A DNA stretch of 64,000 nucleotides from Ectobius pallidus (lineage: Eukaryota > Arthropoda > Insecta > Blattodea > Ectobiidae): positions 49,316,923 through 49,380,922 of the forward strand of contig CAXKWD010000002.1 of the NCBI GenBank assembly GCA_964059195.1. Reading direction: 5' to 3'. The translations under genes were made by a program, and so were the position numbers. This document shows, in pieces, positions 43,675 through 43,710 of the stretch (the first letter of the stretch is position 1; the number at the start of each line of letters is the position of its first letter). Under the pieces are notes generated by a model. That model saw nothing but the letters and a program-made list of their open reading frames with translations. It was not told where the DNA came from and did no database searches.

Positions 43675-43710
43675 CTCCCCAGCAAGAATGACCGTAACTC
43701 AGGCATGATC
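43675..43710 (-). CDS. CCHa1: CCHamide-1 microexon encoding SCLSYGHSCWG
   Basis: On the minus strand a pyrimidine-rich stretch ending in tttgcag precedes 36 bases that end at a consensus donor, GAG/GTAAGT. Reading with two leading bases (GA) gives eleven codons, S-C-L-S-Y-G-H-S-C-W-G, with one base left over. This is the N-terminal eleven residues of the 13-residue CCHamide-1 peptide, whose Cys2 and Cys9 form the disulfide ring in known members. The leading GA finishes a codon begun in the missing upstream exon; a Gly or Arg there would suit cleavage just before the peptide. The exon is far too short for length-based gene finders. The motif, both splice sites and the phase all agree, so I am confident of it. 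Confidence 0.9.

What the first reader, a model, noticed from the sequence alone, without database searches (positions are those of the whole stretch)
43675..43710. CCHamide-1 peptide split by a 20.5-kb intron through a 36-nt microexon
The sequence directly shows SCLSYGHSCWG in a microexon with consensus splice sites, and AHGKR in phase at the start of an exon 20.5 kb away. Together they form a complete CCHamide-1 type peptide. The bioactive 13-mer is therefore divided by a phase-1 intron, and the exon is small enough that automatic annotation would probably miss it, leaving the spacer exons unlabelled.
Basis: partly seen in the sequence, partly recalled or inferred. Interest (0 to 1): 0.88.

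Follow-up and report, generated by a model that had tools for sequence, protein, structure and literature searches.

The report
CCHamide-1 hormone gene with marooned exon
This is an ordinary, apparently intact insect neuropeptide gene (CCHamide-1, from a cockroach relative) whose tiny hormone is encoded in three pieces: a 36-letter piece sits alone between gaps of 111,000 and 20,500 letters, so gene finders can easily lose the hormone itself.

Summary
On the minus strand a 36-nt exon (43675-43710) encodes SCLSYGHSCWG; after a 20,476-bp phase-1 intron, exon 22931-23198 supplies A-H-GKR. The third piece (14847-15015) is real. I added a terminal exon with the stop (12786-12815) and, from the window's own genome, a signal-peptide exon 111 kb upstream, outside the window. 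The five exons join into one 600-nt frame for a 199-aa precursor, about 57% identical to Periplaneta CCHa1. The predicted mature peptide is the published 14-mer GSCLSYGHSCWGAH-amide, not a 13-mer, and lies on three exons. Partial records from a termite and Diploptera begin where these exons begin, so the split is probably inherited. Nearly half of the 20.5-kb intron is one recent BEL-like LTR element. The gene belongs to a known family; only its anatomy is of interest. The boldest open reading is that the intron before the terminal His is the one in bombesin genes. RNA evidence is lacking.

The parts
43675..43710 (-). coding exon 2 (36 nt, phases 1 and 1): rest of the Gly codon, SCLSYGHSCWG, first base of the Ala codon
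23199..43674 (-). intron 2, 20,476 bp, phase 1, inside the codon just before the C-terminal His of the peptide
31805..41248 (-). BEL/Pao-like LTR retrotransposon, 9,444 bp, 46% of intron 2; LTRs 1,633 and 1,632 bp, 99.94% identical, 5-bp target duplication ACGTC; its long ORFs run on the minus strand; described only
   Evidence: one piece matches DUF1759, one the integrase core below Pfam's cut-off, one nothing
22931..23198 (-). coding exon 3 (268 nt): AHGKR (amide donor and dibasic site) and spacer; donor phase 2
15016..22930 (-). intron 3, 7,915 bp, phase 2
14847..15015 (-). coding exon 4 (169 nt): RSRGLHLDG...LRVFKIM; best-matching spacer segment; donor phase 0
12816..14846 (-). intron 4, 2,031 bp, phase 0
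12786..12815 (-). terminal coding exon: SHNGRKLDK and stop TAA; relatives end NHPGRKLDK (P0001) and NHPGRKMDK (P0002)
   Evidence: by similarity alone not above chance (20.8 bits against 24.6 in shuffles), accepted for position, phase, acceptor and stop
43711..64000 (-). window part of intron 1 (111,410 bp, phase 1); the signal-peptide exon lies outside the window at G000:C2:49472043-49472139 (-)

Best explanation
This is the CCHamide-1 neuropeptide gene, apparently single, of a dictyopteran insect (cockroach relative). Shown by sequence: five coding exons (97, 36, 268, 169 and 30 nt) on one strand join at GT-AG borders into one open frame of 600 nt spread over 142 kb. The frame encodes signal peptide, peptide, Gly amide donor, Lys-Arg and spacer. 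Inferred: introns of 111, 20.5, 7.9 and 2.0 kb are removed. The 36-nt exon is recognised despite its isolation because its acceptor (long pyrimidine tract) and donor (AG|gtaagt) are among the best in the region. Signal peptidase then cuts before Gly, the two Cys form a disulphide, convertase cuts at KR, and the Gly is turned into an amide. The result is GSCLSYGHSCWGAH-NH2, a ligand of the CCHamide-1 receptor. The two phase-1 introns inside the peptide code are inherited rather than new. Because the exon is symmetric (1-1), skipping it would leave an in-frame precursor without hormone, a possible off-state for which I saw no example.
For: Precursor orthologs at 49-57% identity over nearly full length: P0001, Periplaneta P0002, Cryptotermes P0004. 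The 14-mer is given in PMC7179676 as found in most polyneopteran orders (passages). 29 of 29 proteins carry the C-x6-C...HGKR motif. A signal exon lies in the same genome on the same strand with the matching phase. The Zootermopsis partial protein begins at SCLSYG and the Diploptera partial protein at HGKR, where these exons begin; a JGI ORF (P0031) reads ...LQS|AHGKR, as an intron ending in ag would. Copy number: one match for a 201-bp probe, no other locus below E 1 for the precursor.
Against: No RNA of this species was available, so splicing is inferred. The signal-exon match is modest (E 2.3e-4) and its donor (GTATGA) ranks only 119 of 13,749 on the hand-set matrix. The acceptor at 23198 is moderate (rank 235 of 3392). 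The terminal exon is short and by similarity alone not above chance. The long introns could hide further exons. The whole-genome searches score best candidates only.
Confidence: 0.96

Rival explanations
1. A decayed or silent copy (pseudogene) whose exons are still readable while the working gene lies elsewhere.
For: Very long introns, one with a young transposon; no RNA evidence.
Against: 600 nt open from ATG to TAA, GT-AG at all four introns, peptide identical to the published common sequence, no other genomic locus below E 1.
Confidence: 0.02
2. The 36-nt exon is a regulated cassette: some cells skip it and make an in-frame precursor without the hormone, a splicing switch for the hormone.
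For: Exon length divisible by 3 and phases 1-1, so skipping keeps the frame.
Against: A search built to find such a form (Periplaneta precursor without the peptide core) returned 6 proteins at E <= 0.001, none with a signal peptide joined to AHGKR. 0 of the 31 proteins show skipping; P0003, P0030 and P0031 hold no signal peptide and could not show it, and protein lists are a poor test for rare isoforms. Both splice sites of the exon rank high.
Confidence: 0.07
3. The split is peculiar to this species, produced by recent intron gain or transposon insertion.
For: A recent LTR element fills 46% of intron 2.
Against: Partial predicted proteins of Zootermopsis and Diploptera start, and a JGI ORF reads through, at the same borders; the element lies inside the intron and makes neither splice site.
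Confidence: 0.03

Closest known systems
CCHamide-1 precursors of Blattodea: Periplaneta americana (P0002, NCBI 'uncharacterized protein CCHa1'), Cryptotermes (P0004), Zootermopsis (P0003, partial)
   Same: Signal peptide ...GLAECAA (Periplaneta, Cryptotermes), GSCLSYGHSCWGAH-GKR directly after it, DTRWFLSKL in the spacer, related KLRVxKIM-like C-terminal segment
   Different: 57% identity to Periplaneta and 49% to Cryptotermes over the aligned part; spacer divergent; genomic exons of the others not seen here
CCHamide-2 (e.g. Periplaneta P0061)
   Same: Two-Cys amidated peptide after the signal peptide...FGHSCFGGH-GKR
   Different: N-terminal KR, CSAFGHSCFGGH, different spacer (21 of 74 aligned columns identical); not found in the 264 kb held around this gene
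Bombesin-type (GRP/NMB) precursor genes
   Same: A conserved phase-1 intron interrupts the peptide code and a phase-0 intron interrupts the C-terminal part (passages of PMC12002301); here likewise phase 1 in the peptide and phase 0 near the C-terminus
   Different: Different peptide without the two Cys; here two further introns (phase 1 in the Gly codon before SC, phase 2 in the spacer)

Membership tests
CCHamide-1 neuropeptide precursor | Peptide S-C-L-x-Y-G-H-S-C-W-G-A/G-H followed by G-K-R | tested here: met
   29 of 29 relatives share the C-x6-C...HGKR motif
CCHamide-1 neuropeptide precursor | Peptide follows the signal peptide immediately | tested here: met
   signal exon MMMVAATRPTVVGVAARIAVLLFIFGLAECAA|G joins directly; cleavage site judged by likeness to relatives, not by a program
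CCHamide-1 neuropeptide precursor | Spacer orthologous to CCHamide-1, not CCHamide-2 | tested here: met
   112 of 198 aligned columns identical to Periplaneta CCHa1, 21 of 74 to its CCHamide-2
CCHamide-1 neuropeptide precursor | Pfam PF27941 | tested here: inconclusive
   precomputed on 29 of 29 relatives; the Pfam copy here returned nothing for this protein or for Periplaneta CCHa1 at E 10, so it seems to lack the model
CCHamide-1 neuropeptide precursor | Amidated disulphide peptide activates the CCHa1 receptor | not testable with these tools
   needs peptidomics and a receptor assay
Bombesin/endothelin/CCHamide superfamily gene structure | Phase-1 intron interrupting the peptide code | tested here: met
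   homology of position not shown
Microexon (<= about 27-30 nt, limit recalled) | Exon length | tested here: not met
   36 nt; very small, but above the strict limit

The most novel reading that the evidence does not exclude
The phase-1 intron that sits in the codon just before the terminal His of CCHamide-1 (W-G-A^-H) is the same ancestral intron that interrupts bombesin/GRP-type peptides (recalled for human GRP: W-A-V-G^-H-L-M, also the codon before His). If so, the peptide has been split since before protostomes and deuterostomes parted, and the split gives gene-level evidence for an orthology so far drawn mainly from receptors.
Probability: 0.35. Interest if true: 0.5.

Novelty: new member of a known kind. 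Interest (0 to 1): 0.3.

Why it matters
Annotation: the informative exon of a hormone gene can be 36 nt marooned between introns of 111 and 20 kb, and the Diploptera record shows a prediction that keeps the spacer without the hormone. Reported absences of CCHamide-1, such as that in Ensifera (PMC7179676) against its presence in the cricket Gryllus (PMC9960350, PMC13042277; passages), deserve caution. Evolution: the intron position may be a deep homology marker between CCHamide and bombesin genes. Otherwise it is an ordinary ortholog.

Tried and rejected
Signal exon inside the window: a scan of 43711-64000 (-) for a phase-1 donor after a hydrophobic Met-led stretch gave one poor candidate (54364), rejected; a fitting exon was later found outside the window.

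Second CCH-like exon in 264 kb (patterns C-x6-C-W/F-G and a few others, six frames): besides this exon only CINQVLFCFG at C2:49457773, judged chance.

Recursive splice (ratchet) sites in introns 1 and 2: none reached score 8 on either strand and the best sense site was below the best antisense site in both introns (hand-set matrix).

Pfam on the joined protein: nothing, but Periplaneta CCHa1 gave nothing too. tRNA and Rfam scans of the window: nothing.

Position of the intron in CCHamide-2 of the same genome, which would test the shared-intron reading: not obtained; the genome service did not answer (see below) and CCHamide-2 is not in the 264 kb held.

Papers: searches listed no paper in whose passages I saw the CCHamide-1 exon structure of a cockroach relative; one search gave one unrelated paper; two searches gave none. 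Passages only were read of ten papers: PMC4237046, PMC6585902, PMC7179676, PMC12002301, PMC8557429, PMC4888303, PMC13042277, PMC11521371, PMC6617912, PMC9960350. PMC5831470 and PMC7058690 were seen only as listings holding the same peptide string. The legend of Fig. 8 in PMC6585902 says that it shows the organisation of three CCHamide genes of the beetle Leptinotarsa with exon boxes; figures are not held, so the same split may already be drawn there.

Full report
Observation. The 36-nt exon is at 43675-43710 on the minus strand with acceptor ...tttctattttgcag and donor gtaagt; the exon at 23198 opens with CC CAT GGG AAA AGA. Read with the split codons they give SCLSYGHSCWG-AH-GKR. The piece at 15015-14847 is in frame with 22931 at a phase-2 junction. 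Matches to relatives score 32.3 bits for the 11 residues of the 36-nt exon (36.2 with two residues read partly from the intron), 60.5 for exon 3 and 71.6 for exon 4, against at most 24.6 bits in 100 shuffled windows.

Identity. A protein search with the joined exons found 29 proteins at E <= 0.001 among 202 candidates; 29 of 29 have the CCHamide motif. The best are an unnamed transcript-sized contig (P0001, contig 1,082 bases), Periplaneta CCHa1, Zootermopsis LOC110840110 (partial), Cryptotermes and Carausius CCHamide 1. The species is therefore most likely a cockroach relative; it is not named, and the best identity is 51% in that listing, so none of the 29 is its own protein. PMC7179676 (passages) gives GSCLSYGHSCWGAH-NH2 for most polyneopteran orders and suggests it as ancestral for Pterygota; the peptide here is identical.

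Completing the gene. Downstream, 12815-12786 reads ttttcag|AGC CAC AAT GGA AGA AAA CTG GAT AAA TAA = SHNGRKLDK-stop, in phase 0 after ...KIM, against NHPGRKLDK and NHPGRKMDK in relatives; by similarity alone (20.8 bits) this is not above chance. Upstream, nothing in the window fits a signal exon. When the genome service answered, the window proved to be G000:C2:49316923-49380922 of a 2.12-Gb assembly in 410 contigs. A search of that genome with P0001 at E <= 10 gave five places: exon 4 (E 3.9e-13), exon 3 (1.9e-10), a same-strand place at C2:49472035-49472130 (2.3e-4), and two at E 3.43 on other contigs with stops. The third reads MMMVAATRPTVVGVAARIAVLLFIFGLAECAA-G|gtatga; 25 of 33 residues match Periplaneta counted from the Gly backwards, 20 of 33 P0001. 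Joined, the exons of 97+36+268+169+30 nt make 600 nt, 199 residues and a stop; the coding span is 142,432 bp; introns are 111,410, 20,476, 7,915 and 2,031 bp with phases 1, 1, 2, 0.

Is the split inherited? I could not fetch relatives' DNA. Indirect evidence: the partial Zootermopsis protein begins at SCLSYG (exon 2 start), the partial Diploptera protein L9F63_011459 begins at HGKR (exon 3 start after the split Ala codon), a JGI ORF reads LTFLHLQS|AHGKR as an unspliced intron ending in ag would, and P0019 reads FWLG|SCLSYG, again like an unspliced intron 1. Popillia P0010 has an extra stretch right after ...NAAG. These fit conserved borders; they do not prove them.

Annotation. Periplaneta and Cryptotermes predictions are complete. 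PMC9960350 (passage) could not place Gryllus CCHamide-1 in the draft genome; PMC13042277 (passage) placed it in a later assembly.

The intron. 9,444 bp (46%) of intron 2 is an LTR element at 31805-41248 with LTRs 99.94% identical and a 5-bp target duplication. Of three pieces given to Pfam one matches DUF1759, one the integrase core below the cut-off, one nothing; the BEL/Pao assignment is partly recalled. So the 20.5-kb length is partly recent. I found no ratchet-type sites that would suggest recursive splicing.

Mechanism. Shown: order, frame, signals and conservation. Inferred: splicing, secretion, disulphide, convertase cut at KR, amidation, receptor binding. The exon is symmetric, so skipping would give an in-frame precursor without hormone; a search aimed at such forms returned 6 proteins at E <= 0.001 of 729 candidates and none of that kind.

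Known and new. The gene is a new member of a known family. PMC12002301 (passages) reports for bombesin-type genes a phase-1 intron in the peptide code and a phase-0 intron in the C-terminal region; in the passages that I read the gene structures compared are those of echinoderms and chordates, not CCHamide genes. Here too there is a phase-1 intron in the peptide and a phase-0 intron near the end. The human GRP intron position (codon before His) is recalled, not looked up; two searches for it gave no paper. A shared ancestral intron is therefore possible, not shown. PMC7179676 (passage) also reports a 16-residue insert after the N-terminal KR of CCHamide-2 in several Caelifera, which would fit an intron at the place of intron 1 in the paralog (inference).

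Linkage. Eight species are named in both the CCHamide-1 list and the CCHamide-2 list: Periplaneta, Zootermopsis, Lycorma, Diprion, Belonocnema, Andrena cerasifolii, Apis mellifera caucasica, Hetaerina. In 8 of 8 the two proteins are given a longest contig of identical length, so presumably the same one (289,542 bp in Zootermopsis; chromosome-sized in most others, where it says less). The pair may be an old tandem duplication. In this genome CCHamide-2 is not within the 264 kb held.

Noticed in passing
window 31805-41248: Recent BEL/Pao-like LTR element (LTRs 99.94% identical, TSD ACGTC) inside intron 2; its two long stop-to-stop frames differ and overlap at 37402-37465. Described only.
   Followed up: partly
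   Followed up: partly
P0015 and P0016 (Lycorma delicatula): Two CCHamide-1 isoforms differ by one Ser in the spacer, perhaps near where this gene's intron 3 lies, as a tandem (NAGNAG) acceptor would give.
   Followed up: no
window 48731-49051; 28575-28858; 45868-46450: A 40-bp array of 8 copies, and arrays of about 145-bp units at two places whose units look alike by eye.
   Followed up: no
window 17981-18379 (+): ORF with a DUF4817 helix-turn-helix domain, probably a mobile-element remnant.
   Followed up: no
window 61496-61695: 200-N stretch inside intron 1, presumably an assembly gap.
   Followed up: no
literature: PMC7179676 states CCHamide-1 is absent from Ensifera, whereas PMC9960350 and PMC13042277 report it in the cricket Gryllus bimaculatus (passages).
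   Followed up: no
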